Shown here: in pieces, positions 3,269-59,258 of the stretch
How the letters are laid out: each line of letters opens with the position of its first letter
How positions within the stretch are numbered: position 1 is the stretch's first letter
NCBI RefSeq assembly: GCF_904849725.1
Contig: NC_058524.1
Coordinates: forward strand, 28,365,001 to 28,429,000
DNA from: Hordeum vulgare subsp. vulgare
Taxonomy: Eukaryota > Streptophyta > Magnoliopsida > Poales > Poaceae
Length of the DNA stretch: 64,000 nt
Direction: 5' to 3'
Made by a program: the position numbers and the translations under genes
Notes under the pieces: model-generated
Databases searched by the model: none
What the model was told of the DNA's origin: nothing
Seen by the model: only the letters and a program-made list of their open reading frames with translations

Positions 3269-3503
3269 CCGCCCGAGCTCTTCCTTCCCCACCGGAGTAG
3301 TGCGTGTCGGTCCAGGATTTTTTAGATTCGAGAGGCTCTGCATTTGTCACCACGTCCCGCGAATTTTAAACAAAAAGCTGTATCGCCATCAACGACCTAC
3401 CAACAAACTACGAGTAGTACTCGATTTGATGCTAAAAAAAGAACTAGTACTCTAATTGACCGCGCGTAAAGCCTAACCGATGTGTATGGGTAGGGTCTGC
3501 GAT

Positions 3504-21459: not shown

Positions 21460-21796
21460 TTTTCAAATAAATGAACAGAACATTTCAAAAATGTGAACAA
21501 TTTTTTGAAACATGAAAAAAATAACATTTTTGAAATTCTGAAGTTTTTTTGGAATACAAACAAATTTTTAAAGTTTGATCTTTCTGGAAATGTAAACAAA
21601 ATTCGAAAATATAATTTTTTTTAGTTCCGAATTTATAAAATTCCTGTTTTTTGAATATATATAAACAAGAATATATTTTTTTTACTTTTTTGAAAATTTA
21701 AACAAATTTTGAAAATCTGGATAGTTTTTGCAAATTTTAACAAAATTTGAAAACCTGGCATTTTTTGAAAATTTGAATCAATTTTGAATACTCAAG
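21460..21796. repeat. AT-rich degenerate micro-repeat
   Basis: Phrases such as aacaatttttgaaac and tttgaaaatttgaatc recur up to the 5' junction of the LINE at about 21797. Confidence 0.5.
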
Positions 21797-38792: not shown

Positions 38793-39486
38793 ATGAAACT
38801 TGTTTTTCTTCAAATTCCTTTGACTGATGCTATTAAGTTGCCTTCGTACTCGCGGTATATGAAAGATATTGTTACTAATAAAAGAAAAGTTCCTAATGAG
38901 GCAATAGATACTATGCTTGCTAATTACTCTTTCAGTGGCAAGATTCCTGAGAAGCTTGGTGATCCAGGTATACCCACCATTCCTTTCTCCATAAAAAATA
39001 GTTATGTCAAAACTGCTTTATGTGATCTTGATGTAGGAGTGAGTGTTATGCCTTTCTCTCTTTACAAAAGGCTATGTCTAGATAAACTAATCCCTACAGA
39101 TATCTCTCTTCAAATGGCTGATAAGTCAACGGCCGTTCCTGTTGTTATTTGTGAGGATGTTCCTGTTGAAGTTGCTAATTGCTTGATCCTTACTGACTTT
39201 GTTGTGCTTGATATGCCCGAGGATGGTAGCATGTCTATTATTCTTGGTAGACCTTTTCTTAACACCGCATGTGCTATTATTGATTGCAATAAAGGAAATG
39301 TGACTTTCAACGTTAATGAGAAGGAGCACACGGTATATTTTCCGAAGAAGATTGATAAAAGGCATAGCCTTAATTCTATTAAGAATATTGAGACCGTGAA
39401 GGTTGGAGAGTGGGATTGTCCTCTACATGTGCACCACAAATACAAAACCATTATGGAGGGGACAATATCCATTGAAATAAAGGTAC
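38793..39486 (+). pseudogene. Gypsy protease region (retropepsin-like), cut by CACTA
   Basis: A frame of about 230 codons follows gag after a second frameshift at about 38763. It contains the conserved segment PLTDAIKLPSYSRYMKDIV, then KTALCDLDVGVSVMPFSL, where the retropepsin active site (usually DLG-A) is expected, and later GSMSIILGRPFLNTA, the family's second conserved strand. The catalytic triplet reads DLD where DLG is expected, so activity is doubtful. The frame is broken off when the CACTA terminus starts at 39487. The short run after it is not part of the gene. Confidence 0.8.
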
Positions 39487-39524
39487 CACTAGTAGAAAAC
39501 GGGCCTTTGGCCTGGACCATTTAG

Positions 39525-39990
39525 TCCCGGCCTGCCTCTGGGCCGGGACTAAAGGTCCGGCCACGTCACCCCAATTCTCAATGCCTCCCTCGAGGCTTTA
39601 GTCCCGACCTGTAAGGAGCCTTTAGTCCCGGTTTGTGTCCCAAACCGGGACTAAAGGGCTACGCGGCGGGCAGTGGTGGTGGCAACCGTTCGTATCCCCC
39701 TTTAGTCCCGGTTGGTGGCTCAACCCGGGACTAAAGGACTAACACGTGGCATGTCGTGGTTGTGGTGACGGTTGGTATACCTCTTTAGTCCCGGTTGGTG
39801 GCTCAACCCGGGACTAAAGGACTAACACGTGGCCTGCCGTAGTGGGGCGACCGTTGGCGTACCTCTTTAGTCCCGGCTGGTGGTTGAACCCGGGACTAAA
39901 AGCCTAACACGTGGCCTGCCGTAGTGGTGGCAACCGTTTGGTATACCTCTTTAGTCCCGGTTGGTGGCTCAAACCGGGATTAAAGGCCCA
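39525..39990. repeat. CACTA subterminal repeats
   Basis: At least five pairs of ctttagtcccggttggtgg and aacccgggactaaagg phrases face each other and can form hairpins. The spacers contain acacgtggc and ccgtagtggtggc. Such subterminal repeats are the known binding region for CACTA transposases. Confidence 0.88.
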
Positions 39991-40157
39991 AACGGTTTGC
40001 ATCCCGCGTCGTTTCGGGCGATGAAAAGCACGAACCGAAGCATACAGTCGCCATTTCTCTCTTCTTCTTCTCTCTCGCATCGCCCTCTCTGTTCTTCTTC
40101 TCTCTCGCGTCGCCCTCTCTGTTCTTCTCCTCTCTTCTTCCCTTCTCTTCTTCCACC

Positions 40158-41723
40158 ATGCCAACTACCTTTCATGAGGTGGTCGCGCATGGCACGACGA
40201 AGCTCCGTGTCGTGTACACGAACCTGAGCACGGAGGTGCCGTTTTTCCTTCAACAGTTGAAGGAACGATGGTTTAACCACGCACCGGATCATGAGAAGTT
40301 CTTCGGGCTGGATCTGGAGTACACGGCCGATCAACGCGGTGTTGCCGTCATCCAAATATGCTTCGCAAGCCATGTCTTGATCTTTCAATGGGCGAGGTAA
40401 GTTTTGAGGCTTTCTTTGATCCAAGATAATGACATTGTATAAGTTTATTTGTTTCTATCATAGTTGGTTCCCTTCAAATAGTTGTAGTGGAACAATTTTG
40501 ATTAGTTGAAGGGGAGCACAATCTAATTGGAATAGTGTTCCATAATCTGAAAAATCGTATTAGAATCAACTAGTGTTTAATATGTTCCATTGGAATCATA
40601 GTTGGTTCCCTTCAAATAGTTGTAGTGAAACAATTTTGATTAGTTGAAGGGGAGCACAATCTAATTGGAATAGTGTTCCATAATCTGAAAAATTGTATTA
40701 GAATGAACTAGTGTTTAATATGTTCCATTGGAATCATAGTTGGTTCCCTTCAAATAGTTGTAGTGAAACAATTTTGATTACTTGAAGGGGAGCACAATCT
40801 GATTGGAATAGTCTTCCATAATCTGAAAAATCGTATTAGAATCAACTAGTGTTTAATATGTTCCATTGGAATCATAGTTGGTTCCCTTCAAATAGTTGTA
40901 GTGAAACAATTTTGATTAGTTGAAGGGGAACACAATCTGATTGGAATAGTGTTCCATAATCTGAAAAATCGTATTAGAATCAACTAGTGTTTAGTATGTT
41001 CCATTGGAATCATAGTTGGTTCGCTTCAAATAGTTGTAGTGAAACAATTTTGATTAGTTGAAGGGGAACACAATCTGATTGGAATAGTGTTCCATAATCT
41101 GAAAAATCGTATTAGAATGAACTAGTGTTTAATATGTTCCATTGGAATCATAGTTGGTTCGCTTCAAATAGTTGTAGTGATCTCTCTAGGTTCCATTGCA
41201 TATGTTCTATTTGAATCCTAAAGATAAGTTTCTCTTTAGTTGTAGTGAAACATGTTTCCTTATTGCACCAGTATGTAACATTTGTTCCATTCTAATTTTT
41301 TTCTGTTGCAGGAGTGACAAGCATTGTCCTGGACTCATGGAGTTCCTTCGCAGCGGCGTCACTTTTGCTTCCGTTGACATAAGGAACGACAAGCTGAAGA
41401 TGAGGCACAGCTTCGATATTGAGATACCAGCTGGTTGCCTCGTTGATCTCCAAACGATATTCAGGCTTCGACATGACAGGACTTCGATGGCTCATATGGC
41501 AGTTGCCTTGATCGACGAGTCATATGGTGATATGAAGACCAGTTTCCCAAAGTATCATCACAAACTTTGGGAGAAGGGACCACTTGATGATATCAACATT
41601 CAGTATGCAGCAAAAGATGCATACGTTTCATACGAGTTGTACCGCAAGATTCGAGTCGTCAACTATGGCCAGCGTCACCTCGAGGAACTTGGACATTCTG
41701 ATTTAGATGATTCAGACGAGTAG
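40158..41723 (+). CDS. DnaQ/WRN-type 3'-5' exonuclease carried by CACTA, two exons
   Basis: Exon 1 is 40158-40396 and exon 2 is 41312-41723, with GT/AG borders (gcgag/gtaag and ttgcag). The joined frame of 216 aa is intact. All exonuclease motifs are present: Exo I FFGLDLEY (D52, E54), Exo II with SVDIRNDKLKM (D106), and Exo III YAAKDAY (Y178, D182). The spacing matches the Werner-syndrome-like exonuclease domain, which digests nucleic acid from the 3' end with two metal ions. The protein is little more than this domain plus a short acidic tail ending DDSDE. The start lies in a good context (ccaccatgcc) after a pyrimidine-rich leader, 670 bp from the CACTA end. The intron holds a 138-bp tandem array. 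It may be a cargo gene amplified with the transposon. Its role is unknown. Confidence 0.85.
40458..41195 (+). repeat. 138-bp tandem array in the exonuclease intron
   Basis: The marker tcatagttggttc starts units at about 40458, 40596, 40734, 40872, 41010 and 41148, an exact 138-bp period. The units differ by only a few bases. It fills most of the 915-bp intron without touching the splice sites. Confidence 0.92.
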
Positions 41724-41959: not shown

Positions 41960-42784
41960 GTCTTCAGTTCAAATAAGTTCAAATAAGTTCAGTGCTTTTC
42001 AATTTCAGGGTCAACTAGCTCAAAAAAAAAATAAGTAAATGCACGAAATATACCAAATGAAGTCAGAAATTGTTGAAATTTTGTGATGTGCCTTTGAATG
42101 GTGCATTTTGAACACACAAAAAGTATGGAGTTCAAATAAGTTCAAAAAAAATGAAATCCCTTTGTAAGAGATGAGTTCTCGTTCGAAACCCTGCTACTTC
42201 GAGAGAGATTGTCAGTTTTGTACACGAAGTGCATCCAGTTTTTGTCGTAGCCCTCTCTACTTTTTAAAACATGCTATGTGGGTGAAATGATGATAGCATG
42301 CCAACTTTCAACATTTTCATAGTTCATTTGTAGTGCTTTTCAATTTCAGGGTCAACTAGCTCAAAAAAATAAGTAAATGCACGAAATATACCAAATGAAG
42401 TCAGAAATTGTTGAAATTTTGTGATGTGCCTTTGAATGGTGCATTTTGAACACAAAAAAAGTATGGAGTTCAAATAAGTTTAAAAAAATGAAATCGCTTT
42501 GTAAGAGATGAGTTCTCGTTCGAAACCTTGCTACTTCGAGAGAGATTGTCAGTTTTGTACACGAAGTGGATCCAGTTTTTGTCGTAGCCCTCTAAACATT
42601 TTAACACATGCTATGTGGGTGAAATGATGATAGCATGCCAACTTTCAACATTTTCAGAGTTCATTTGTAGTGCTTTTCAATTTCAGGGTCAACTAGCTTA
42701 AAAAAAAAGTAAATGCACGAAATATACCAAATGAAGTCAGAAATTGTTGAAATTTTGTGATGTGCCTTTGAATGGTGCATTTTG
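41960..42784 (+). repeat. About 337-bp satellite-like array, left part
   Basis: The marker agtgcttttcaatttcaggg recurs at 41991, 42332 and 42669. The unit includes aaatgcacgaaatatacc, gagttctcgttcgaaacc and an inverted pair (catgctat...atagcatg). The array is split by the Copia element and resumes at 51741. Confidence 0.92.
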
Positions 42785-44609
42785 TGTTGGAATTATGCCC
42801 TAGAGGCAATAATAAATGTATAGTTATTATTATAATTCTTGTATCAAGATAATAGTTTATTATCCATGCTATAATTGTATTGAATGAAGACTCATTTACA
42901 TGTGTGGATACATAGACAAAACACCGTCCCTAGCATGCCTCTAGTTGGCTAGCCAGTTGATCGATGATAGTCAATGTCTTCTGATTATGAACAAGGTGTT
43001 GTTGCTTGATAACTGGATCACGTCATTAGGAGAATCACGTGATGGACTAGACCCAAACTAATAGACGTAGCATGTTGATCGTGTCATTTTGTTGCTACTG
43101 TTTTCTGCATGTCAAGTATTTATTCCTATGACCATGAGATCATATAACTCACTGACACCGGAGGAATGCTTTGTGTGTATCAAACATCGCAACGTAACTG
43201 GGTGACTATAAAGATGCTCTACAGGTATCTCCGAAGGTGTTAGTTGAGTTAGTATGGATCAAGACTGGGATTTGTCACTCCGTGTGACGGAGAGGTATCT
43301 CGGGGCCCACTCGGTAATATAACATCACACACAAGCCTTGCAAGCAATGTAACTTAGTGTAAGTTGCGGGATCTTGTATTACGGAACGAGTAAAGAGACT
43401 TGCCGGTAAACGAGATTGAAATAGGTATGCGGATACTGACGATCGAATCTCGGGCAAGTAACATACCGAAGGACAAAGGGAATGACATACGGGATTATAC
43501 GAATCCTTGGCACTGAGGTTCAAACGATAAGATCTTCGTAGAATATGTAGGATCCAATATGGGCATCCAGGTCCCGCTATTGGATATTGACCGAGGAGTC
43601 TCTCGGGTCATGTCTACATAGTTCTCGAACCCGCAGGGTCTGCACACTTAAGGTTCGACGTTGTTTTATGCGTATTTGAGTTATATGGTTGGTTACCGAA
43701 TGTTGTTCGGAGTCCCGGATGAGATCACGGGCGTCACGAGGGTTTCCGGAATGGTCCGGAAACGAAGATTGATATATAGGATGACCTCATTTGATTACCG
43801 GAAGGTTTTCGGAGTTACCGGGAATGTACCGGGAATGACGAATGGGTTCCGGGGGTTCACCGGAGGGGGGCAACCCACTCCGGGGAAGCCCATAGGTATT
43901 TGTGGGGGTCACACCAGCCCTTAGTGGGCTGGTGGGACAGCCCACCAAGTCCTATGCGCCAAGGAACAAAAATCAAAGGAAGAAAGAAAAAAAAAAGAGG
44001 AAGTGGGAAAGGGGAAGGACTCCCTCCCACCAAACCAAGTAGGACTCGGTTTGGGGGGGGAGAGTCCTCCCCCCTGGCTCGGCCGACCCCCTTGGAGTCC
44101 CTTGGACTCCAAGGCAAGGTCCCCCTCCCTCCTCCTATATATATGGGGCTTTTAGGGCAGATTTGAGACGACTTTCTCACGGCTGCCCGACCACATACCT
44201 CCATAGTTTTTCCTCTAGATCGTGTTTCTGCGGAGCTCGGGCGGAGCCCTGCTGAGACAAGATCATCACCAACCTCCGGAGCGCCGTCACGCTGCCGGAG
44301 AACTCTTCTACCTCTCTGTCTCTCTTGCTGGATCAAGAAGGCCGAGATCATCGTCGAGCTGTACGTGTGCTGAACGCGGAGGTGCCGTCCGTTCGGTACT
44401 AGATCGTGGGACTGATCGCGGGATTGTTCGCGGGGCGGATCGAGGGACGTGAGGACGTTCCACTACATCAACCGCGATCTCACATCGCTTCTGCTGTACG
44501 ATCTACAAGGGTACGTAGATCACTCATCCCCTCTCGTAGATGGACATCACCATGATAGGTCTTCGTGCGCGTAGGAAAATTTTTGTTTCCCATGCGACGT
44601 TCCCCAACA
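42785..44609 (+). repeat. 5' LTR of Copia copy 1
   Basis: Starts TGTTGGAATTATGCC, ends CCCCAACA. It carries a TATA box at 44137-44144 and ends one base before the primer-binding site. Confidence 0.95.
44137..44144 (+). promoter_or_regulatory. LTR TATA box (Copia copy 1)
   Basis: TATATATA in ctcctatatatatggggc, the position of the promoter in this LTR family. The same site occurs in the 3' LTR at about 51268 and in copy 2 at about 58767. Confidence 0.75.
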
Positions 44610-44610
44610 G

Positions 44611-44628
44611 TGGCATCATGAGCTAGGT
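44611..44628 (+). promoter_or_regulatory. Primer-binding site of Copia copy 1 (variant)
   Basis: Directly after the LTR comes tggcatcatgagctagg. The usual initiator tRNA-Met site is tggtatcagagc, so this copy has one substitution and one inserted base in the pairing region. Copy 2 has the same sequence at 59241. Confidence 0.7.
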
Positions 44629-45880
44629 TCATGCGTAGATGTCTTCTCGAGTAGAACACAAAAGGTTTTGTGGGCGGTGATGTGCGTTTTGCTGCCCTCC
44701 TTAGTCTTTTCTTGATTCCGCGGTATTGTTGGATTGAAGCGGCTTGGATCGACATTACTCGTACGCTTACGAGAGACTGGTTTCATCGTTACGAGTAACC
44801 CCCTTTGCTCAAAGATGACTGGCAAGTGACGGTTTCTCCAACTTTAGTTGAATCAGATTTGACCGAGGAGGTCCTTGGATGAGGTTAAATAGCAACTCAT
44901 ATATCTCCGTTGTGGTGTTTGCGTAAGTAAGATGCGATCCTACTAGATACCCTTGGTCACCACGTAAAACATGCAACAACAAAAATTAGAGGACGTCTAA
45001 CTTGTTTTTGCAGGGTATGATTGTGATGTGATATGGCCAATGATGTGATGTGATATATTGGATGTATGAGATGATCATGTTGTAATAGAAATATCGACTT
45101 GCACGTCGATGGTACGGCAACCGGCAGGAGCCATAGGGTTGTCTTTATACTAACATATGTGCTTGCAGATGCGTTTACTATTTTGCTAGGATGTAGCTTT
45201 AGTAGTGATAGCATAAGTAGCACGAAAACCCCGATGGCGACACATTGATGGAGATCATGATGATGGAGATCATGGTGTGGCGCCGGTGACAAGAAGATCG
45301 TGCCGGTGCTTTGGTGATGGAGATCAAGAAGCACGTGATGATGGCCATATCATGTCACTTATGAATTGCATGTGATGTTAATCCTTTTATGCACCTTATT
45401 TTGCTTAGAACGACGGTAGCATTATGAGGTGATCTCTCACTAAAATTTCAAGACGAAATTGTGTTCTCCCCGACTGTGCACCGTTGCTACAGTTCGTCGT
45501 TTCGAGACACCACGTGATGATCGGGTGTGATAGACTCAACGTTCACATACAACGGGTGCAAAACAGTTGCGCACGCGGAACACTCGGGTTAAGCTTGACG
45601 AGCCTAGCATGTGCAGACATGGCCTCGGAACACATGAGACCGAAAGGTCGATCATGAATCATATAGTTGATATGATTAGCATAGGGATGCTTACCACTGA
45701 AACTACTCTCGACTCACGTGATGATCGGACTTGGGATAGTGTAAGTGGATCATGAACCACTCAAATGACTAGAGAGATGTACTTTTTGAGTGGGAGTTTA
45801 GCATATAATTTGATTAAGTTGAACTCTAATTATCTTGAACATAGTCTAAGTCCACTTTGAATATATTTGTGTTGTAGATC
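44629..45880 (+). other. Long untranslated leader of Copia copy 1
   Basis: This 1.25-kb stretch between primer site and gag is non-coding and nearly identical to 59259-60509 in copy 2. A long leader is normal in this group, where packaging signals are expected. None is identified here. Confidence 0.7.
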
Positions 45881-48800
45881 ATGGCTTACGCAAAGTGTCA
45901 TCCTCAATTTTAATACGTTCCTAGAGAAAGCTAAGTTGAAAGATGATGGAAGCAACTTTGTAGACTGGGCTCGTAATCTTAAGCTAATCTTACAAGCTGG
46001 AAAGAAGGATTATGTCCTTAATGCTGCGCTAGGAGATGAACCACCCACTACGGCTGATCAGGATGTTAAGAACGCTTGGCTAGCACGTAAGGAGGACTAC
46101 TCAATAGTTCAATGTGCAGTCTTGTATGGCTTAGAGCCGGGACTTCAACGTCGCTTTGAGCGTCATGGAGCATTTGAGATGTTCCAGGAGTTGAAGTTTA
46201 TCTTTCAGAAGAACGCCCGGATCGAGAGGTATGAGACCTCCGATAAATTCTATGCTTGCAAGATGGAGGAAAGCTCGTCTGTCAGTGAACATGTGCTCAA
46301 AATGTCTGGGTACTCAAACCGTCTAGCTGAACTAGGGATTGAACTCCCGCAAGAAGCTATCACTGACAGAATCCTCCAATCACTGCCGCCAAGCTATAAA
46401 GGCTTTGTGTTGAACTACAACATGCAAGGGATGAACAAGTCTCCCGGCGAGTTGTTTGCGATGCTGAAAGTCGCAGAGTCTGAACTCCGTAAAGAGCATC
46501 AAGTGTTGATGGTGAGCAAGACCACTAGTTTCAAGAGAAACGGCAAAGGCAAGAAGGGAAATTCGAAGAAGAGCGGCAAGCCTGTTGCCAATCCGCCAAA
46601 GAAACCCAAGGCTGGATCTAAGCCTGAAACAGAGTGCTTCTATTGCAAGGGTATGGGTCACTGGAAGCGCAATTGCCCCAAGTATCTGGCAGATAAGAAG
46701 GCGGGTAAAGACAAATCAGGTATATTTGATATACATGTTATTGATGTGTACTTAACCGGCTCTCGTAGTAGTGCCTGGGTATTCGATACCGGTTCTGTTG
46801 CTCACATTTGCAACTCGAAGCAGGAACTGCGGAATAGACGGAGGCTGGCGAAAGACGAAGTGACGATGCGTGTAGGAAACGGTTCCAAAGTTGATGCAAT
46901 CGCCGTCGGCACCGTGTCACTTCAACTACCATCGGGATTAGTGATGAACTTAAATCATTGTTATTTAGTGCCTGCGTTGAGCATGAACATTATATCTGGA
47001 TCTTGTTTATTGCGAGACGGTTACTCTTTTAAGTCTGAGAATAATGGTTGTTCTATTTCTATGAGTAACATCTTTTATGGTCATGCACCGAATGTGAGAG
47101 GATTGTTCATATTGAATCTTGATAGAGATACGCATATACATAACATTGAGACCAAAAGAGTTAGAGTAAACAATGATAGCGCCATATTTTTGTGGCACTG
47201 CCGCTTGGGTCATATTGGTGTAAAGCGCATGAAGAAACTCCATGCTGATGGACTTTTGGAGTCACTTGACTTTGATTCACTTGACACGTGTGAACCATGC
47301 CTCATGGGCAAGATGACTAAAACTCCGTTCTCCGGAACAATGGAGCGTGCAAGTGACTTGTTGGAAATCATACATACCAATGTGTGTGGTCCGATGAGCG
47401 TGGAGGCACGCGGCGGATATCGTTATTTTCTCACCTTCACTGACGATTTAAGTAGATATGGTTATGTCTACTTGATGAAGCACAAGTCTGAAACATTTGA
47501 AAAGTTCAAGCAATTTCAGAGTGAAGTGGAAAATCATCGTAACAAGAAGATCAAGTTCCTACGGTCTGATCGTGGGGGTGAGTATCTGAGTTTCGAGTTT
47601 GGTGCTCACTTAAGACAATGTGGAATTGTTTCGCAGTTAACACCGCCTGGAACACCACAGCGTAATGGTGTGTCCGAACGTCGTAATCGTACTTTGTTAG
47701 AAATGGTGCGATCTATGATGTCTCTTACTGATTTGCCGTTATCGTTTTGGGGTTATGCATTAGAAACAGCTGCATTCACTTTAAATAGGGCACCATCAAA
47801 ATCCGTTGAGACGACACCATACGAACTGTGGTATGGCAAAAGACCAAAGTTGTCGTTTCTTAAAGTTTGGGGATGTGATGCTTATGTCAAAAAGCTTCAG
47901 CCTGAGAAGCTGGAACCCAAAGCGGAAAAGTGCGTCTTCATAGGTTACCCAAAAGAGACAGTTGGGTACACCTTCTATCTCAAATCCGAGGGCAAAGTGT
48001 TTGTTGCTAAGAACGGAACTTTTCTCGAGAAGGAGTTTCTCTCGAGAGAATTGAGTGGGAGGAAGATAGAACTTGACGAGGTTGTTGAACCTCTCATCCC
48101 TCTGGATGGTGGCGCAGGGCAAGGGGAAACCCCTGTGATTGCGACGCCGGTTGAGGAGGAAGTTAATGATGATGATCATGAAACTCCAGTTCAAGTTTCT
48201 GTTGAAACCACGCAGGTCGACGAGATCACGCGCTGCTCCAGAGTGGTACGGTAATCCCGTCTTGACAATCATGTTGTTAGACAACAATGAACCTGCAAAT
48301 TATGAAGAAGCAATGGTGGGCCCAGATTCCAACAAATGGCTAGAAGCCATGAAATCCGAGATAGGATCCATGTATGAGAACAAAGTATGGACTTTGGAGA
48401 TACTACCTGAGGGCCGCAAGGCTATTCAGAACAAATGGATCTTTAAGAAAAAGACGGACGCTGACGGTAATGTGACCGTTTATAAAGCTCGACTTGTGGC
48501 AAAGGGTTTTTCACAAGTTCCAGGAATTGACTACGATGAGACTTTCTCTCCCGTAGCGATGCTTAAATCCGTCAGAATCATGTTAGCAATAGCTGCATTT
48601 TTCGATTATGAAATTTGGCAGATGGATGTCAAAACGGCGTTCCTTAACGGTTTTCTTAAGGAAGAGTTGTATATGATGCAACCCGAAGGTTTTTGTCGAT
48701 CCTAAAAATGCTGACAAAGTGTGCAAACTCCAGCGATCCATTTATGGACTGGTGCAAGCATCTCGGAGTTGGAACAAACGCTTTGATGAGGTGATCAAAG

Positions 48801-49864
48801 CATTTGGGTTTACACAAGTGGTTGGAGAATCTTGTATTTACAAGAAAGTGAGTGGGAGCTCTGTGGCGTTTCTAATATTGTATGTGGATGACATATTACT
48901 GATTGGAAACAACGTAGAGCTTTTGGAGAGCATAAAAGGTTACTTGAATAAAAGTTTCTCTATGAAGGACCTAGGAGAAGCTGCTTACATTCTAGGCATT
49001 AAGATCTATAGGGATAGATCAAAACGCCTGATAGGACTTTCACAAAGCACATACCTTGATAAAGTTTTGAAGAGGTTCAAAATGGAACAGTCCAAGAAAG
49101 GGTTCTTGCCAGTGTTACAAGGTACGAGATTGAGTAAGACTCAGTGCCCAGCAACTGATGAAGATAGAGAACATATGCGCTCCGTCCCCTATGCTTCAGC
49201 CATAGGTTCTATCATGTATGCGATGCTGTGCACTAGACCGGATGTTAGCCTGGCCATAAGTATGGCAGGTAGGTTCCAGAGTAATCCAGGAGTGGATCAC
49301 TGGACGGCGGTCAAGAATATCCTGAAGTACCTGAAAAGGACTAAGGAGATGTTTCTCGTGTATGGAGGTGACGAAGAGCTCGCCGTAAAAGGTTACGTCG
49401 ATGCAAGCTTTGACACAGATTCGGACGACTCTAAGTCGCAAACCGGATACGTATTTATTCTAAATGGGGGTGCAGTAAGCTGGTGCAGTTCCAAGCAAAG
49501 CGTCGTAGCAGATTCTACAGGTGAAGCAGAGTACATGGCTGCCTCGGAGGCGGCTAAGGAGGGTGTCTGGATGAAGCAGTTCATGACGGATCTTGGAGTG
49601 GTGCCAAGTGCACTGGATCCAATAACCTTGTTCTGTGACAACACTGGTGCCATTGCCTTAGCAAAGGAACCAAGGTTTCACAAGAAGACCAGACACATCA
49701 AACGACGCTTCAACCTCATCCGCGACTACGTCGAGGAGGAGGACGTAAATATATGCAAAGTGCACACGGATCTGAATGTAGCAGACCCACTGACTAAACC
49801 TCTTCCACGGCCAAAACATGATCGACACCAGAACTGTATGGGTGTTAGATTCATTACAATGTAA
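45881..49864 (+). pseudogene. Copia gag-pol polyprotein of copy 1, three frameshifts
   Basis: Domains in order are gag, a CCHC knuckle (CFYCKGMGHWKRNC), protease (WVFDTGS), integrase (HCRLGH...CEPC zinc end, core with RSDRGGEY and NGVSERRNR), reverse transcriptase (YVDD), and RNase H (YVDASF, GEAEY, CDNTGA), ending at 49862-49864. Compared with copy 2 it has one extra A in codon 5 (45892-45894), one extra A at 48205-48207 and one extra T at 48690-48694. All three lie in homopolymer runs. The long frames are 45911-48254, 48139-48705 and 48719-49864. The first integrase catalytic Asp is Asn here (IIHTNVCGP, codon 47379-47381), where copy 2 keeps Asp. The copy cannot make a normal polyprotein unless the indels are assembly errors. 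Confidence 0.92.
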
Positions 49865-49897
49865 TTCACATGGTGATGTGAGGGCTAGATTATTGAC

Positions 49898-49916
49898 TCT
49901 AGTGCAAGTGGGAGAC
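49898..49916 (+). promoter_or_regulatory. Polypurine tract before the 3' LTR
   Basis: gcaagtgggagac lies directly upstream of the 3' LTR and is the likely plus-strand primer. Confidence 0.7.
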
Positions 49917-51740
49917 TGTTGGAATTATGCCCTAGAGGCAATAATAAATGTATAGTTATTATTATAATTCCTGTATCAAGATAATAGTTTATTATCCATG
50001 CTATAATTGTATTGAATGAAGACTCATTTACATGTGTGGATACATAGACAAAACACCGTCCCTAGCATGCCTCTAGTTGGCTAGCCAGTTGATCGATGAT
50101 AGTCAATGTCTTCTGATTATGAACAAGGTGTTGTTGCTTGATAACTGGATCACGTCATTAGGAGAATCACGTGATGGACTAGACCCAAACTAATAGACGT
50201 AGCATGTTGATCGTGTCATTTTGTTGCTACTGTTTTCTGCGTGTCAAGTATTTATTCCTATGACCATGAGATCATATAACTCACTGACACCGGAGGAATG
50301 CTTTGTGTGTATCAAACGTCGCAACGTAACTGGGTGACTATAAAGATGCTCTACAGGTATCTCCGAAGGTGTTAGTTGAGTTAGTATGGATCAAGACTGT
50401 GATTTGTCACTCCGTGTGACGGAGAGGTATCTCGGGGCCCACTCGGTAATACAACATCACACACAAGCCTTGCAAGCAATGTAACTTAGTGTAAGTTGCG
50501 GGATCTTGTATTACGGAACGAGTAAAGAGACTTGCCGGTAAACGAGATTGAAATAGGTATGCGGATACTGACGATCGAATCTCGGGCAAGTAACATACCG
50601 AAGGACAAAGGGAATGACATACGGGATTATACGAATCCTTGGCACTGAGGTTCAAACGATAAGATCTTCGTAGAATATGTAGGATCCAATATGGGCATCC
50701 AGGTCCCGCTATTGGATATTGACCGAGGAGTCTCTCGGGTCATGTCTACATAGTTCTCGAACCCGCAGGGTCTGCACACTTAAGGTTCGACGTTGTTTTA
50801 TGCGTATTTGAGTTATATGGTTGGTTACCGAATGTTGTTCGGAGTCCCGGATGAGATCACGGACGTCACGAGGGTTTCCGGAATGGTCCGGAAACGAAGA
50901 TTGATATATAGGATGACCTCATTTGATTACCGGAAGGTTTTCGGAGTTACCGAGAATGTACCGGGAATGACGAATGGGTTCCGGGGGTTCACCGGAGGGG
51001 GGCAACCCACTCCGGGGAAGCCCATAGGTATTTGTGGGGGTCACACCAGCCCTTAGTGGGCTGGTGGGACAGCCCACCAAGTCCTATGCGCCAAGGAACA
51101 AAAATCAAAGGAAGAAAGAAAAAAAAAGAGGAAGTGGGAAAGGGGAAGGACTCCCTCCCACCAAACCAAGTAGAACTCGGTTTGGGGGGGGAGAGTCCTC
51201 CCCCCTAGCTCGGCCGACCCCCTTGGAGTCCCTTGGACTCCAAGGCAAGGTCCCCCTCCCTCCTCCTATATATATGGGGCTTTTAGGGCAGATTTGAGAC
51301 GACTTTCTCACGGCTGCCCGACCACATACCTCCATAGTTTTTCCTCTAGATCGTGTTTCTGCGGAGCTCGGGCGGAGCCCTGCTGAGACAAGATCATCAC
51401 CAACCTCCGGAGCGCCGTCACGCTGCCGGAGAACTCTTCTACCTCTCCGTCTCTCTTGCTGGATCAAGAAGGCCGAGATCATCGTCGAGCTGTACGTGTG
51501 CTGAACGCGGAGGTGCCGTCCGTTCGGTACTAGATCGTGGGACTGATCGCGGGATTGTTCGCGGGGCGGATCGAGGGACGTGAGGACGTTCCACTACATC
51601 AACCGCGATCTCACATCGCTTCTGCTGTACGATCTACAAGGGTACGTAGATCACTCATCCCCTCTCGTAGATGGACATCACCATGATAGGTCTTCGTGCG
51701 CGTAGGAAATTTTTTGTTTCCCATGCGACGTTCCCCAACA
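49917..51740 (+). repeat. 3' LTR of Copia copy 1
   Basis: Same ends as the 5' LTR. At most of the positions where the two LTRs differ, this one agrees with the 5' LTR of copy 2, so the 5' LTR of copy 1 holds most of the new changes. Confidence 0.95.
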
Positions 51741-54700
51741 TTTTGAACACGCAAAAAGTATGGAGTTCAAATAAGTTTAAAAAAATGAAATCCCTTTGTA
51801 AGAGAAGAGTTCTCGTTCGAAACCCTGCTACTTCGAGAGAGATTGTCAGTTTTGTACACGAAGTGCATCCAGTTTTTGTCGTAGCCCTCTCAACTTTTTA
51901 ACACATGCTATGTGGGTGAAATGATGATATAGCATGCCAACTTTCAACATTTTCAGAGTTAATTTGTAGTGCTTTTCAATTTCAGGGTCAACTAGCTCAA
52001 AAAAAATAAGTAAATGCACGAAATATACCAAATGAAGTTAGAAATTGTTGAAATTTTGTGATGTGCCTTTGAATGGTGCATTTTGAACACACAAAAAGTA
52101 TGGAGTTCAAATAAGTTTAAAAAAATGAAATCCCTTTGTAAGAGATGAGTTCTCGTTCGAAACCCTACTACTTCGAGAGAGATTGTCAGTTTTGTACACG
52201 AAGTGCATCCAGTTTTTGTCGTAGCCCTCTCAACTTTTTAACACATGCTATGTGGGTGAAATGATGATAGCATGCCAACTTTCAACATTTTTAGAGTTCA
52301 TTTGTAGTGCTTTTCAATTTCAGGGTCAACTAGCTCAAAAAAATAAGTAAATGCACGAAATATACCAAATGAAGTTAGAAATTGTTGAAATTTTGTGATG
52401 TGCCTTTGAATGGTGCATTTTGAACACACAAAAAGTATGGAGTTCAAATAAGTTTTAAAAAAATGAAATCCCTTTGTAAGAGATGAGTTCTCGTTCGAAA
52501 CCCTGCTACTTCGAGAGAGATTGTTAGTTTTGTACACGAAGTGCATCCAGTTTTTGTCGTAGCCCTCTAACTTTTTAACACATGCTATGTGGGTGAAATG
52601 ATGATATCATGCCAACTTTCAACATTTTCAGAGTTCATTTGTAGTGCTTTTCAATTTCAGGGTCAACTAGCTCAAAAAAAAAAGTAAATGCACGAAATAT
52701 ACCAAATGATGTCAGAAATTGTTGAAAATTTGTGATGTGCCTTTGAATGGTGCATTTTGAACACACAAAAAGTATGGAGTTCAAATAAGTTTAAAAAAAA
52801 TGAAATCGCTTTGTAAGAGATGAGTTCTCGTTCGAAACCCTGCTACTTCGAGAGAGATTGTCAGTTTTGTACACGAACTGCATCCAGTTTTTGTCGTAGC
52901 CCTCTCAACTTTTTAACACATGCTATGTCGGTGAAATTATGATAGCATGCCAACTTTCAACATTTTCAGAGTTCATTTGTAGTGCTTTTCAATTTCAGGG
53001 TCAACTAGCTCAAAAAAATAAGTAAATGCACGAAATATACCAAATGAAGTCAGAAATTGTTGAAATTTTGTGATGTGCCTTTGAATGGTGCATTTTGAAC
53101 ACACAAAAGTTATGGAGTTCAAATAAGTTTAAAAAAATGAAATCCCTTTGTAAGAGATGAGTTCTTGTTCGAAACCCTACTACTTCGAGAGAGATTGTCA
53201 GTTTTGTACACGAAGTGCATCCAGTTTTTGTCGTAGCCCTCTCAACTTTTTAACACATGCTATGTGGGTGAAATGATGATAGCATGCCAACTTTCAACAT
53301 TTTCATAGTTCATTTGTAGTGCTTTTCAATTTCAGGGTCAACTAGCTAAAAAAAAAGTAAATGCATGAAATATACCAAATGAAGTCAGAAATTGTTGAAA
53401 TTTTGTGATGTGCCTTTGAATGGTGCATTTTGAACACACAAAAAGTATGGAGTTCAAATAAGTTTAAAAAAATGAAATCGCTTTGTAAGAGATGAGTTCT
53501 CGTTCGAAACCTTGCTACTTCGAGAGAGATTGTGAGTTTTGTACACGAAGTGGATCCAGTTTTTGTCTAGCCCTCTCAACTTTTTAACACATGCTATGTG
53601 GGTGAAATGATGATAGCATGCCAACTTTCAACATTTTCAGAGTTCATTTGTAGTGCTTTTCAATTTCAGGGTCAACTAGCTCAAAAAAAAAAGTAAATGC
53701 ACGAAATATACCAAATGAAGTCAGAAATTGTTGAAATTTTGTGATGTGCCTTTGAATGGTGCATTTTGAACACACAAAAAGTATGGAGTTCAAATAAGTT
53801 TAAAAAAATGAAATCCCTTTGTAAGAGATGAGTTCTCGTTCGAAACCGTGCTACTTCGAGAGAGATTGTCAGTTTTGTACACGAAGTGCATCCAGTTTTT
53901 GTCGTAGCCCTCTCAACTTTTTAACACATGCTATGTGGGTGAAATTATGATAGCATGCCAACTTTCAACATTTTCAGAGTTCATTTGTAGTGCTTTTCAA
54001 TTTCAGGGTCAACTAGCTCAAAAAAAATAAGTAAATGCACGAAATATACCAAATGAAGTCAGAAATTGTTGAAATTTTGTGATGTGCCTTTGAATGGTGC
54101 ATTTTGAACACACAAAATATGGAGTTCAAATAAGTTTAAAAAAATGAAATCCCTTTGTAAGAGACAAGTTCTCGTTCGAAACCCTGCTACTTCGAGAGAG
54201 ATTGTCAGTTTTGTACACGAAGTGCATCCAGTTTTTGTCGTAGCCCTCTCTACTTTTTAAAACATGCTATGTGGGTGAAATGATGATAGCATGCCAACTT
54301 TCAACATTTTCATAGTTCATTTGTAGTGCTTTTCAATTTCAGGGTCAACTAGCTCAAAAAAATAAGTAAATGCACGAAATATACCAAATGAAGTCAGAAA
54401 TTGTTGAAATTTTGTGATGTGCCTTTGAATGGTGTGTTTTGAACACAAAAAAAGTATGGAGTTCAAATAAGTTTAAAAAAATGAAATCGCTTTGTAAGAG
54501 ATGAGTTCTCGTTCGAAACCTTGCTACTTCGAGAGAGATTGTCAGTTTTGTACACGAAGTGGATCCAGTTTTTGTCGTAGCCCTCTAAACTTTTTAACAC
54601 ATGCTATGTGGGTGAAATGATGGTAGCATGCCAACTTTCAACATTTTCAGAGTTCATTTGTAGTGCTTTTCAATTTCAGGGTCAACTAGCTCAAAAAAAA

Positions 54701-55070
54701 GTAAATGCACGAAATATACCAAATGAAGTCAGAAATTGTTGAAATTTTGTGATGTGCCTTTGAATGGTGCATTTTGAACACGCAAAAAGTATGGAGTTCA
54801 AATAAGTTTAAAAAAATGAAATCCCTTTGTAAGAGATGAGTTCTCGTTCGAAACCCTGCTACTTCGAGAGAGATTGTCAGTTTTGTACACGAAGTGCATC
54901 CAGTTTTTGTCGTAACCCTCTCAACTTTTTTAACACATGCTATGTGGGTGAAATGATGATAGCATGTCAACTTTCAACATTTTCAGAGTTCATTTGTAGT
55001 GCTTTTCAATTTCAGGGTCAACTAGCTCAAAAAAATAAGTAAATGCACGAAATATACCAAATGAAGTCAA
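51741..55070 (+). repeat. About 337-bp satellite-like array, right part
   Basis: The array resumes with ttttgaacacgcaaaaag right after the Copia target duplication. It continues with unit starts at roughly 51968, 52307, 52643, 52981, 53320, 53655, 53992, 54327, 54663 and 55001. With the left part this makes about 13 units. Differences are mostly single bases and changes in A-run length. No unit encodes a recognisable protein. Frames on the minus strand are repeat artefacts. Confidence 0.95.
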
Positions 55071-55795
55071 ATAACAAAATAGATAATAGTTTGGATAGTC
55101 AAAATTATTAATTATGAAAATAAAAAATAGTTTTGCATTATTTATTCAATTTGAAACACTTTTCATTATCATAGTTTTGTCAAATTCTCAAATATGCAAA
55201 AAGAATTTTTAATAAACATAGTTTTTAATTGAAAATAACAAAATTGATAATAGTTTGGATAGTCAAAATTATTAATTATGAAAATAAAAAATAGTTCTGC
55301 ATTATTTATTCAATTTGAAACACTTTTCATTATCATAGTTTTGTCAAATTCTCAAATATGCAAAAAGAATTTTTAATAAACATAATTTTTAATTGAAAAT
55401 AACAAAATAGATAATAGTTTGGATAGTCAAAATTATTAATGATGAAAATAAAAAATAGTTTTGCATTATTTATTCAATTTGAAACACTTTTCATTATCAT
55501 AGTTTTGTCAAATTCTCAAATATGCAAAAATAATTTTTTATAAACATAGTTTTTAATTGAAAATAAAAAAATAGATAATAGTTTGGATAGTCAAAATTAT
55601 TAATTATGAAAATAAAAAATAGTTTTGCATTATTTATTCAATTTGAAATACTTTTCATTATAATAGTTTTGTCAAATTCTCAAATATGCAAAAAGATTTT
55701 TTAATAAACATAGTTTTTAATTGAAAATAACAAAATAGATAATAGTTTGGATAGTCAAATTTATTAATTATGAAAATAAAAAAAGTTGAAACTAT
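55071..55795 (+). repeat. 164-bp AT-rich tandem array
   Basis: The marker gataatagtttggatagtc recurs at 55082, 55246, 55410, 55574 and 55738, an exact 164-bp period. It adjoins the 337-bp array without spacer. Confidence 0.92.
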
Positions 55796-55954
55796 ATTCG
55801 AGATCATAGAGAAAATTCAACCTAAATTCTCATTTGAATTTAGATTGAATTTTCCCTATAATTTTTAATATAGTTACAATTTTCAGTGAGTTTAGGCCCG
55901 TAAGCCTGCTTTAGAGAGGAGCTCGATGGAGAAGCTGCGACGTGGCTTATAAAC
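55796..55954. other. Short spacer with an inverted repeat
   Basis: aattcaacctaaattctcat and ttgaatttagattgaatttt are nearly inverted copies and can form a hairpin at about 55813-55852. No gene. Confidence 0.55.
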
Positions 55955-56212
55955 AAGTGTTAGTCCCCCTCGCTGGGCGAGGTGGGACTAAACTTATCGT
56001 ACAGCCGAGGAGGGTCTTTAGTCCCGGTTGGAGCCACGCCCCGGGACTAAAGACCCCCTTTAGTCCCGGTTGGAGCGGGACTAAAGACCCCCTGCTTCCC
56101 GCCTCGTGGTTTGCCCGAAAAGAGGCCTTTAGTCCCGGGTCGTGGCTCCACCCGGGACTAAAGGGGGTCTTTAGTCCCGGCTCGAGCCACGCACCGGGAC
56201 TATAGGTCCACC
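55955..56212. repeat. Second block of CACTA-type subterminal repeats
   Basis: Facing tttagtcccggttggag and ccgggactaaag phrases occur at least four times. They end just before the TATA box at 56213. This block precedes the second CACTA gene, as the first block precedes the exonuclease gene. Confidence 0.8.
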
Positions 56213-56220
56213 TATATAAG
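56213..56220 (+). promoter_or_regulatory. TATA box of the second CACTA gene
   Basis: TATATAAG in cacctatataagcggg, followed by a pyrimidine-rich leader similar in style to that of the exonuclease gene. Confidence 0.6.
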
Positions 56221-57094
56221 CGGGACTTCGAAAATTTCCAACCCAATTCGTCCATTTCTCTTCTTCTTCCTCTCGTTCTCCTGCCCGGCGCGGCACAGCG
56301 ACGAACGTAACCGACTCCGTCAGGCTGCCCGCCGTCCTGCTCGTCGTCGCGCCGTCCTCCTCGCCGTCGCGCCGTCCTCCTCGCCGCCGCGCCGTCCTCC
56401 TCGTCGTCCTCCTCGCCGTCGCGCCGTGCTCCTCGCCGTCGCGCCGTCCTCCACGCCGTCCTCCTCGCCAACACTCCGGCCAGTAAGCCCCCCGCCCCCT
56501 CCTCCCCAACACTCCGGCCAGTATAGAAGAAAAGAAGAAAAAGGAGAAGAGAAGAATAAAAAGGAGAAGAAAGGAAGAAAAAGGAGAAGAAAAGAAGAAA
56601 AAGGAGAAGAAAAGAAGAAAAAGAAAAGATTTTTTGTCATTTAATTCCTATTGTTATTAGGTTTGTGCTAGATTATTAGGGTTAGTAATATTTAGAATTA
56701 GGTTAGGGTTACAAGAAGAATAAATATGAACAAAAATAAGAAAATAATATTAGGAAAAATGAAAATAAGAAGAGGAGGAGAAAAAAAGAAGAAAAAGTGT
56801 ATATTGTATAGTGTATATGCTTAAGTGTATAGTGTATATAGTGTATAGTGTATAAGGAGAGGAGGAATTTTGCTATAGTGTATATAGTGTATAGTGTATA
56901 AGAAAAGAAGAAAAGAAGAGGAGGAGAAGAGAAGAAAAGAAGAGGAGGAGAAGAGAAGAAAGAAGAGGAGAAGAAGAAAAATGAAAATAAGTGTTAATAG
57001 TTTAATTTTGCTATTGTATATGCTTAAGTGTTAATAGTTTATTTTTAGCAAGAAAATTAATAGAACTAGTTTATTTTTTTTAGTTCATTTTACG
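56221..57094 (+). other. Low-complexity leader: gccgtcctcctc repeats, purine tract, tgtata runs
   Basis: 56335-56470 consists of cgccgtcctcctcgccgtc-type 9- to 12-bp repeats. 56525-56630 is a gaagaaaaggaga purine tract. 56795-56910 has agtgtatatagtgtatagtg runs. No gene. Frames here are repeat artefacts. An intron may lie in this region. Confidence 0.7.
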
Positions 57095-57394
57095 ATGCCT
57101 ATCCCGCATCCTCGTCTTCGACTCGGCGGAGGACAGCTGCTTGATCAGAGGGGTCCTGTCCGGGACTGGGCTCCGCCCGACTAGTATTGGGAGGTGCTAC
57201 CTTCCGGGGGGCGTAGGTTGGTGAGGAGCCAGCCCGTCGTTGACCCGATCCTTGTTTGGTGGCGGTCGCGTGGGCCTGTGAGGGTGCCGAGGCTTCCGGA
57301 TACCGCGGAGGTGGTACGTCACCGTGTCAGCGAGGAGGATGAGCACGTCCATCGCTACATGGTTGCGTTGGAGGGCAGGTTCGAGCATACGTGA
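57095..57394 (+). pseudogene. Second CACTA-borne gene fragment, function unknown
   Basis: The ATG at 57095 (tacgatgcct) opens a frame beginning MPIPHPRLRLGGGQLLDQRG. It reaches a TAG at 57182, then continues in the same frame as YWEVLPSGGRRLVRSQPVV and on to VSEEDEHVHRYMVALEGRFE, with a TGA at 57392. The Copia element at 57416 cuts the sequence 21 bp later. The steady coding-like composition and single frame suggest a real former gene of the CACTA element. I do not recognise a domain. Confidence 0.6.
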
Positions 57395-57415
57395 CAGGTT
57401 CTTAGGGGATCTCAC

Positions 57416-59239
57416 TGTTGGAATTATGCCCTAGAGGCAATAATAAATGTATAGTTATTATTATAATTCCTGTATCAAGATAATAGTTTATTATCCATGC
57501 TATAATTGTATTGAATGAAGACTCATTTACATGTGTGGATACATAGACAAAACACCGTCCCTAGCATGCCTCTAGTTGGCTAGCCAGTTGATCGATGATA
57601 GTCAGTGTCTTCTGATTATGAACAAGGTGTTGTTGCTTGATAACTGGATCACGTCATTGGGAGAATCACGTGATGGACCAGACCCAAACTAATAGACGTA
57701 GCATGTTGGTCGTGTCATTTTGTTGCTACTGTTTTCTGCGTGTCAAGTATTTATTCCTATGACCATGAGATCATATAACTCACTGACACCGGAGGAATGC
57801 TTTGTGTGTATCAAACGTCGCAACGTAACTGGGTGACTATAAAGATGCTCTACAGGTATCTCCGAAGGTGGTAGTTGAGTTAGTATGGATCAAGACTGGG
57901 ATTTGTCACTCCGTGTGACGGAGAGGTATCTCGGGGCCCACTCGGTAATACAACATCACACACAAGCCTTGCAAGCAATGTAACTTAGTGTAAGTTGCGG
58001 GATCTTGTATTACGGAACGAGTAAAGAGACTTGCCGGTAAACGAGATTGAAATAGGTATGCGGATACTGACGATCGAATCTCGGGCAAGTAACATACCGA
58101 AGGACAAAGGGAATGACATACGGGATTATACGAATCCTTGGCACTGAGGTTCAAACGATAAGATCTTCGTAGAATATGTAGGATCCAATATGGGCATCCA
58201 GGTCCCGCTATTGGATATTGACCGAGGAGTCTCTCGGGTCATGTCTACATAGTTCTCGAACCCGCAGGGTCTGCACACTTAAGGTTCGACGTTGTTTTAT
58301 GCGTATTTGAGTTATATGGTTGGTTACCGAATGTTGTTCGGAGTCCCGGATGAGATCACGGACGTCACGAGGGTTTCCGGAATGGTCCGGAAACGAAGAT
58401 TGATATATAGGATGACCTCATTTGATTACCGGAAGGTTTTCAGAGTTACCGGGAATGTACCGGGAATGACGAATGGGTTCCGGGGGTTCACCGGAGGGGG
58501 GCAACCCACTCCGGGGAAGCCCATAGGTATTTGGGGGGGTCACACCAGCCCTTAGTGGGCTGGTGGGACAGCCCACCAAATCCTATGCGCCAAGGAAGAA
58601 AAATCAAAGAAAGAAAAAAAAAGGGAGGGGAAGTGGGAAAGGGGAAGGACTCCCTCCCACCAAACCAAGTAGGACTCGGTTTGGGGGGGGAGAGTCCTCC
58701 CCCCTGGCTCGGCCGACCCCTTGGGGTTCCCTTGGACCCCAAGGCAAGGCCCCCCTCCCTCCTCCTATATATATGGGGCTTTTAGGGCAGATTTGAGACG
58801 ACTTTCTCACGGCTGCCCGACCACATACCTCCATAGTTTTTCCTCTAGATCGTGTTTTTGCGGAGCTCGGGCGGAGCCCTGCTGAGACAAGATCATCACT
58901 AACCTCCGGAGCGCCGTCACGCTGCCGGAGAACTCTTCTACCTCTCCGTCTCTCTTGCTGGATCAAGAAGGCCGAGATCATCGTCGAGCTGTACGTGTGC
59001 TGAACGCGGAGGTGCCGTCCGTTCGGTACTAGATCGTGGGACTGATCGCGGGATTGTTCGCGGGGCGGATCGAGGGACGTGAGGACGTTCCACTACATCA
59101 ACCGCGATCTCTAATCGCTTCTGCTGTACGATCTACAAGGGTACGTAGATCACTCATCCCCTCTCGTAGATGGACATCACCATGATAGGTCTTCGTGCGC
59201 GTAGGAAATTTTTTGTTTCCCATGCGACGTTCCCCAACA
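57416..59239 (+). repeat. 5' LTR of Copia copy 2
   Basis: Same termini as the copy 1 LTRs, TATA box at about 58767, and followed by the variant primer site tggcatcatgagctagg at 59241. Confidence 0.95.
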
Positions 59240-59258
59240 GTGGCATCATGAGCTAGGT

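What the first reader, a model, noticed from the sequence alone, without database searches (positions are those of the whole stretch)
40158..41723. Intact WRN-type 3'-5' exonuclease gene riding in a CACTA transposon
A complete two-exon gene with all five catalytic residues (D52, E54, D106, Y178, D182) sits 670 bp inside the CACTA terminus, behind the subterminal repeats and a pyrimidine-rich leader. It is only the exonuclease domain plus a short acidic tail. The surrounding Gypsy and Copia genes are all damaged, yet this frame and its splice sites are intact. That is what one expects if the product is useful to the host or to the transposon, for example in processing ends during transposition. 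Usefulness to either is inference.
Basis: partly seen in the sequence, partly recalled or inferred. Interest (0 to 1): 0.75.

Follow-up and report, generated by a model that had tools for sequence, protein, structure and literature searches.

The report
Exonuclease gene built into CACTA transposons
A jumping-DNA family in what is most likely the barley genome carries an intact nucleic-acid-trimming enzyme gene as one of its regular parts; sampled copies suggest the gene is kept for the transposon's own spread rather than for the plant, and a similar gene in wheat transposons was already reported.

Summary
In detail: a two-exon, 216-aa WRN/WEX-type exonuclease gene (40158-41723) starts 671 bp inside a CACTA left end (39487). 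Fetching the right flank closed the element: TAC on both sides, about 13.7 kb without two nested Copias, and a second, broken Transposase_24-like gene. The intact frame is not special: 17 of 30 close copies are intact. The gene is a regular part of this family: of 51 sampled copies, 45 have the subterminal motif upstream and 44 the 337-bp array downstream. Selection is mixed. Single copies decay near-neutrally (terminal omega about 1), against use to the host. On shared branches nonsense is depleted (4 seen, 14.1 expected; but 2 against 5.2, P 0.11, in copies sampled by DNA alone), active-site residues persist in distant relatives, yet codons 1-60 change faster than neutral (omega 1.92; 0 of 48 simulations). 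Best reading: an accessory gene selected at transposon level; a passenger is not excluded. Daron et al. 2014 already reported a 3'-5' exonuclease gene repeated in two wheat CACTA families. End processing is untested; interference with silencing is the boldest reading left.

The parts
39484..39486 (.). 3-bp target site duplication TAC, left copy (right copy at L059:4848-4850, outside the window)
   Evidence: Read directly
39487..39500 (+). Left terminal sequence CACTAGTAGAAAAC of the CACTA element
   Evidence: the right end reads ...CCCCACTAGTG before TAC
39510..40000 (.). Subterminal repeats (TTTAGTCCCGG...CCGGGACTAAA), 83-bp period
40018..40157 (+). Pyrimidine-rich leader upstream of the ATG
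   Evidence: Read directly; 30-bp repeat unit
40158..40396 (+). Exon 1 of the exonuclease gene (codons 1-79 and part of 80); holds D52 and E54
40397..41311 (+). Intron with 5.2 copies of a 138-bp tandem repeat
41312..41723 (+). Exon 2 with stop; holds D106, Y178, D182 and the acidic tail
41991..42784 (.). CACTA-internal 337-bp tandem array, first part (interrupted by a Copia element)
42785..51740 (.). Copia retrotransposon nested in the array; TSD TTTTG at 42780-42784 and 51741-51745; LTRs differ at 11 of 1823 sites
51741..55107 (.). CACTA-internal 337-bp tandem array, second part
55069..55860 (.). CACTA-internal 164-bp tandem array
56008..56213 (.). Second cluster of TTTAGTCCCGG repeats, with TATATAA just downstream; possibly the promoter region of the second gene (inference)
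57092..57415 (+). ORF-like stretch interrupted by the second Copia element; perhaps the 5' part of the second CACTA gene (inference, no family match run)
57416..64000 (.). Second Copia of the same family, running off the window; TSD CTCAC; ends at window coordinate 66371. The CACTA element resumes in L059:73-4847 with a Transposase_24-like gene and the right end (window coordinate 71146)

Best explanation
The gene is a standing accessory gene of a two-gene CACTA family. SHOWN: it lies just inside the left end, ahead of tandem arrays and a Transposase_24-like second gene, and many sampled copies across the genome share this layout. SHOWN on samples: it diverges in step with the surrounding CACTA sequence; single copies decay near-neutrally; in the full sample, branches shared by several copies keep the frame and the deeply conserved residues while the rest, especially codons 1-60, changes quickly. 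INFERRED: the protein is an active DEDDy 3'-5' exonuclease made by intact copies, and it raises the chance that the element family spreads, so selection acts on element lineages and not on the plant. INFERRED and least certain: of the two plausible targets I narrowly prefer RNA in the host's silencing pathway over trimming DNA ends at excision or gap repair, because fast change outside a kept catalytic core looks like an arms race and plant WEX and worm MUT-7 of this enzyme type act in silencing.
For: Layout and linkage: of 51 sampled copies 45 have the subterminal motif upstream and 44 the 337-bp array downstream (5 others hold too little sequence to show the array); a strict CACTA end was found in 9 of the 17 copies with at least 1.1 kb upstream, plus 3 with less. 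Second gene: among 163 exonuclease places and 125 second-gene places, 15 pairs lie within 40 kb, 14 with the second gene downstream on the same strand; 0.39 pairs expected at random. Co-inheritance: Mantel r 0.58-0.80 between exons and intron head, intron tail, leader and array in 23 chosen of 46 copies (18 for the array); 0 of 999 permutations reach each. Selection, 46 copies: internal nonsense 4 against 14.1 expected, P 0.0017; terminal 29 against 29.8. At the 56 sites conserved in 44 distant relatives, internal replacements are 0.42 of expectation, against 1.68 at the least conserved 101 sites. Codons 1-60 internal omega 1.92, 0 of 48 neutral simulations as high, LRT 6.35. In divergent copies the indels are multiples of three except in L009, L018 and L026; those in close copies are 1 or 2 bases (L055 with a 210-base deletion was left out). 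Active site among 50 relatives at 44% mean identity, counting those with a letter there: D52 39 of 42, E54 39 of 42, D106 47 of 49, Y178 47 of 50, D182 39 of 50. Silencing role of WEX: passages of PMC8062710; MUT-7: abstract of PMC8700014.
Against: Overall omega is near or above 1, also in the core on internal branches (1.30; 2 of 48 neutral simulations as high), which is not classical purifying selection. Among 30 close copies, variants shared by two or more give omega 1.21 and include 3 nonsense changes. In the 31 copies sampled by DNA search alone the nonsense deficit is 2 against 5.2, P 0.11, and internal omega 1.07; the conserved-site contrast there is not significant (Fisher 0.32 and 0.09). 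Fifteen of the 46 copies came from a Pfam search and may be biased toward intact frames. Constraint at conserved sites also appears on short terminal branches (omega 0.51), so the internal/terminal contrast is not clean. Six of 43 copies have a catalytic residue replaced and one has two of them deleted; all five residues are kept in 27 of 37 near and 33 of 50 distant annotated relatives. No transcript or splicing evidence: five relatives from short public contigs read what looks like intron sequence at the junction. The target (RNA or DNA) rests on analogy only.
Confidence: 0.57

Rival explanations
1. Neutral passenger: a host exonuclease gene was captured once by a CACTA element (Pack-CACTA type) and multiplied only because the family was successful; intact copies are simply young.
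For: dN/dS near 1 overall; single copies decay near-neutrally; 17 of 30 close copies intact, with only 0.22 nonsense changes expected per copy (my division); 3 nonsense variants shared by 2-3 close copies; Daron et al. 2014 list the wheat copies as captured genes (PMC4290129, passages); no significant nonsense deficit in the DNA-only sample.
Against: Nonsense depletion on shared branches in the full sample (P 0.0017), mostly in-frame indels in divergent copies, avoidance of conserved sites, active-site conservation at 44% mean identity.
Confidence: 0.3
2. Transposition factor (a version of the best explanation with another target): the exonuclease trims 3' ends at the excision site or during gap repair of CACTA elements.
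For: Recurrent position next to the element end and upstream of the second CACTA gene; catalytic residues mostly kept; exonuclease trimming of 3' overhangs after excision is described as a host repair step (PMC4423477, passages).
Against: No direct test; excision repair is described as the host's work; the fast-changing first 60 codons are not what a generic DNA trimmer predicts.
Confidence: 0.25
3. Host-useful gene: a copy, or this copy, has been taken over by the plant.
For: Daron et al. report 19 captured genes on wheat 3B that are expressed with dN/dS below 0.4 (PMC4290129, passages); the passages do not say whether the exonuclease is among them.
Against: Terminal branches near-neutral; many copies; this copy is 98-99% identical in exon 2 to others elsewhere and shows no sign of special preservation.
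Confidence: 0.04
4. Host locus with CACTA sequence inserted beside it.
For: None found.
Against: The element is bounded by TAC on both sides with the gene inside; the same gene-plus-CACTA unit recurs at dispersed places.
Confidence: 0.01

Closest known systems
Putative 3'-5' exonuclease gene in wheat CACTA families DTC_famc5 (Vincent, 3 copies) and DTC_famc6 (TAT, 7 copies), Daron et al. 2014, PMC4290129 (passages seen)
   Same: A gene named as the same kind of enzyme, repeated in several CACTA copies of a Triticeae genome; the authors infer recent DNA exchange between the two families.
   Different: There treated as gene capture on one wheat chromosome. Here a probable barley element is closed at both ends, shown to carry a second CACTA gene, and its copies are tested for selection by branch. 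Sequence identity to the wheat copies was not tested: no wheat DNA was fetched.
Pack-CACTA elements / transduplication (review PMC13317346, passages seen)
   Same: Chromosomal (host) sequence inside CACTA ends.
   Different: Here a complete gene persists with the element through deep divergence.
WRN / Arabidopsis WEX / C. elegans MUT-7 exonucleases
   Same: DEDDy exonuclease domain; the family profile finds WRN at 1.2e-15 and a mut-7 homolog at 0.00019.
   Different: Only the domain, 216 aa, with an N-terminal strand pair and helix ahead of it (model of P0001), on a transposon.
VANC anti-silencing proteins of Arabidopsis VANDAL elements (PMC5735166, abstract) and transposon-encoded TET/JBP dioxygenases of fungi (PMC12730594, abstract)
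   Same: Accessory genes kept by DNA transposons; TET/JBP genes also moved between transposon lineages.
   Different: Different protein families; anti-silencing is only a hypothesis here.

Membership tests
CACTA (En/Spm) superfamily | Ends CACTA...TAGTG-type inverted repeats | tested here: met
   Left CACTAGTAG at 39487, right end CACTAGTG at L059:4840-4847; inverted identity is short (7 bp, then degenerate)
CACTA (En/Spm) superfamily | 3-bp target site duplication | tested here: met
   TAC both sides; the empty-site search did not complete
CACTA (En/Spm) superfamily | Subterminal repeats at both ends | tested here: met
   TTTAGTCCCGG at 39510-40000 and L059:4639-4806
CACTA (En/Spm) superfamily | TNP2-type transposase (PF02992) for an autonomous element | tested here: inconclusive
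   No candidate ORF seen in ORF lists (150 aa or more over the window; the longest ORFs of 55800-57415 and L059:73-4847), but no PF02992 profile was run on the element itself. The genome has such genes elsewhere (150 of 150 scored of 26004 candidates). Probably non-autonomous (inference)
CACTA (En/Spm) superfamily | Second gene (ORF2 / Transposase_24 type) | tested here: inconclusive
   PF03004 19.6 bits, E 0.001, below the cut-off of 28.7; open frames of about 805 aa in some other copies
DEDDy 3'-5' exonuclease, WRN/WEX type | Pfam DNA_pol_A_exo1 over cut-off | tested here: met
   41.4 bits against 23.6
DEDDy 3'-5' exonuclease, WRN/WEX type | Five catalytic residues D, E, D, Y, D | tested here: met
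   Present in the window copy; the family profile aligns these positions to WRN; which WRN residues are catalytic is recalled
DEDDy 3'-5' exonuclease, WRN/WEX type | Fold shared with solved WRN-type exonucleases | tested here: inconclusive
   Confident model of P0001 (mean pLDDT 90.1), but the fold search was not accepted
DEDDy 3'-5' exonuclease, WRN/WEX type | Nuclease activity | not testable with these tools
   Needs purified protein
Transposon-encoded anti-silencing factor | Loss of silencing when expressed | not testable with these tools
   Hypothesis only

The most novel reading that the evidence does not exclude
Triticeae CACTA transposons use a rapidly evolving WEX-type exonuclease as their own counter-defence: it enters the host's small-RNA silencing pathway, by cutting silencing RNAs or by competing with host WEX, and so lets the elements spread.
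Probability: 0.14. Interest if true: 0.85.

Novelty: new variant of a known kind. Interest (0 to 1): 0.5.

Why it matters
Daron et al. describe a massive amplification of CACTA elements in wheat (PMC4290129, passages); what lets such families spread is open. A catalytic enzyme kept by transposon lineages, while individual copies rot, would be a testable cause. It also cautions annotators: many barley proteins listed as '3'-5' exonuclease domain-containing' are close relatives of this gene and may be transposon genes; I did not map them.

Tried and rejected
Intact frame as evidence of use: rejected, since 17 of 30 close copies are intact. Plain NG86 dN/dS: misleading here. The close-copy value of 0.82 is about the neutral expectation once CpG and CHG mutation rates from non-coding sequence are used (my estimate). 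A codon fit with rates shared between regions gave internal omegas of 2.73, 0.91 and 2.15; it mixes in rate differences between regions, so I used the region-by-region fit. Host gene with CACTA beside it: rejected. Public contigs as splicing evidence: five relatives (P0035, P0036, P0037, P0042, P0051) read what looks like intron sequence at the junction; more distant ones that span it (such as P0059) could be spliced or intronless, so neither helps. Viral contigs: no match to P0001 (that tool may leave out this genome). TNP2 near the gene: the genome-wide list is only 150 of 26004 candidates and was not used for linkage. The CACTA family name (Caspar, Balduin, Vincent, TAT or other) could not be settled.

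Dropped before counts: other PF01612 genes L001-L008, L010, L016, L019; L029 (the window copy itself); L024, L025, L041, L047 and L064 (no exon 1 found) and L055 (210-base deletion) from the tree-based selection tests. From I used 90 of 149 rows (matches from about profile position 52 on, minus three found to be other families), 125 of 126 (one on a small contig left out). L060-L064 are 5 chosen of the 40 places. Internal and terminal branches come from one FastTree tree with parsimony ancestors; indels were compared by length only, not placed on the tree.

Full report
WHAT IS THERE. The gene is as described: ATG 40158, exon 1 to 40396, GT-AG intron, exon 2 41312-41723, 216 aa. It matches Pfam DNA_pol_A_exo1 over the cut-off (41.4 bits) and human WRN exonuclease, with all five DEDDy residues. 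A model of the close relative P0001 is confident (mean pLDDT 90.1, pTM 0.87) and shows an N-terminal strand pair and helix (residues 4-41) ahead of the strand that holds D52 and E54. A fold search was not accepted.

THE ELEMENT. The left end CACTAGTAGAAAAC (39487) is preceded by TAC. Two Copia elements of one family, each 8956 bp by my arithmetic, are nested in it, with TSDs TTTTG and CTCAC. Beyond the second, in L059 (fetched from the same chromosome), lie a Transposase_24-like gene with two in-frame stops (L059:776-3187: 19.6 bits, below the cut-off), more TTTAGTCCCGG repeats, and the right end CACTAGTG followed by TAC. Without the Copias the element is about 13.7 kb. No TNP2-type transposase ORF was seen in the ORF lists, though no such profile was run on the element; it is probably non-autonomous. 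The LTRs of the first Copia differ at 11 of 1823 sites, so the CACTA insertion is older than that; with a remembered grass rate of 1.3e-8 per site per year, roughly 0.2 million years. The joined-flank (empty-site) search did not complete.

THE GENOME. The window is C7:28365001-28429000 of a 4.2-Gb genome. I take it as barley: its nearest proteins are Hordeum vulgare (96%) and the chromosome lengths agree with barley Morex V3 from memory. A DNA search with exon 2 scored 40 of 1715 first-look candidates and matched all 40, itself included, at 98% or more; a divergent subfamily gave 40 of 40 scored of 2363. Across three searches 163 distinct places were matched; the true copy number is not known.

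LINKAGE. Of 51 sampled copies with exon 2, 45 have the subterminal motif upstream and 44 have the 337-bp array downstream; five of the seven without the array held too little downstream sequence. A strict CACTA end lies 424-1080 bp before the ATG in 9 of 17 copies with at least 1.1 kb upstream, and in 3 with less. The second gene lies 4.4-8.4 kb downstream on the same strand in 12 pairs and 25.7 kb in two (one of them this window), 14 of 15 pairs in all, with 0.39 expected at random. Exon distances track leader, intron and array distances among 23 chosen copies, 18 for the array (r 0.58-0.80; 0 of 999 permutations as high). The gene therefore travels with the element and does not look captured anew each time.

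SELECTION. Mutation rates by context were taken from intron and leader of close copies. Under them the neutral N/S is 2.73; singletons in 30 close copies give 99/44 = 2.25 (omega 0.83) with 3 nonsense against 6.5 expected, which I read as close to neutral; variants shared by two or more give omega 1.21 with 3 nonsense. On a tree of 46 copies terminal branches are neutral: omega 1.08, nonsense 29 against 29.8. Internal branches show nonsense 4 against 14.1 (P 0.0017) but omega 1.31. By region with a codon model, internal omega is 1.92 for codons 1-60 (0 of 48 neutral simulations as high), 1.30 for the core (2 of 48), and 1.2 for the tail (31 of 48); terminal values are 1.00, 1.01 and 1.04. At 56 sites conserved in 44 distant relatives, internal replacements are 0.42 of expectation and synonymous changes 0.78; at the least conserved 101 sites replacements are 1.68. 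Conserved sites also show reduced replacement on short terminal branches (omega 0.51). In the 31 copies obtained by DNA search alone the picture is weaker: nonsense 2 against 5.2 (P 0.11), internal omega 1.07, conserved-site omega 0.43, contrast with terminal branches not significant. The other fifteen copies were found through a Pfam search, which may favour intact frames. Indels in divergent copies are multiples of three except in L009, L018 and L026, whereas those in close copies are 1 or 2 bases.

DEEP CONSERVATION. A profile search found relatives in Festuca, Triticum, Aegilops, Alopecurus and Lolium. In 50 relatives under 70% identity (mean 44%; some are barley) four of the five catalytic residues are kept in 93-96% of the sequences that have a letter there, and D182 in 39 of 50; all five are kept in 33 of 50, eight lacking the first two by truncation or gap. 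Whether these relatives ride on CACTA elements was not tested.

READING. Single copies do not look kept by the host. The lineages that spread seem to keep a coding, catalytically plausible enzyme while much of the rest changes fast. That is what a transposon-level accessory gene predicts, and less what a passenger or a host gene predicts, but a passenger is not excluded because the unbiased subsample is small. What it acts on is open. WEX promotes post-transcriptional silencing, and a WEX-like protein lacking the full signature was proposed as a dominant-negative suppressor (PMC8062710, passages); MUT-7 acts in siRNA synthesis (PMC8700014, abstract); other DNA transposons carry anti-silencing genes or genes thought to be so (PMC5735166 and PMC12730594, abstracts). 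These are leads by analogy.

WHAT IS KNOWN. Daron et al. 2014 (PMC4290129, passages) report a putative 3'-5' exonuclease gene repeated in three Vincent and seven TAT CACTA copies on wheat chromosome 3B and suggest recent DNA exchange between the families. So an exonuclease gene in Triticeae CACTAs is not new. I saw no paper on this gene in barley CACTAs or on its selection by branch in the listings of searches, which are capped, and most subscription papers are not in that library.

ODDS. The transposition-factor rival overlaps the best explanation and differs only in the target.

Noticed in passing
window 41197-41311 and the same place in other copies: The last 115 or so bases of the intron are more alike between copies than the exons are (median distance 0.10 against 0.20 among 23 copies). 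Cause unknown.
   Followed up: partly
window 40397-41311: Intron length varies between copies, often in steps of the 138-bp repeat (777, 915, 1191).
   Followed up: no
window 40021: An upstream ATG in the leader is out of frame here, but some annotated proteins (P0018 and P0022 as shown) begin further upstream in frame and gain about 35 mostly hydrophobic residues.
   Followed up: no
window 56008-56213: A second, internal cluster of TTTAGTCCCGG repeats followed by TATATAA, like a copy of the left-end region in front of the second gene.
   Followed up: no
L042 (C6:10156763) and C6:10131038: Another copy has the second gene 25,725 bp downstream, almost the same spacing as in the window (25,763), though the exonuclease exons are only 97.5% alike.
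   Followed up: no
L003, L004, L010: Other PF01612 genes, about 30-34% identical and without the strict CACTA motifs in the sequence held, show an AHGTTKL-VIHTN-like N-terminus; a possible source family for the transposon gene.
   Followed up: partly
C5:6775272 and C5:6811924: Two exonuclease copies with identical spacing (6209 bp) to the second gene, about 37 kb apart on one strand: a probable local duplication.
   Followed up: no
window 21777-25733: LINE-like endonuclease and reverse transcriptase reading frames, interrupted (family by eye, not searched).
   Followed up: no
window 2164-3346, minus strand: Overlapping frames that look like a short-chain dehydrogenase gene (by eye, not searched).
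   Followed up: no
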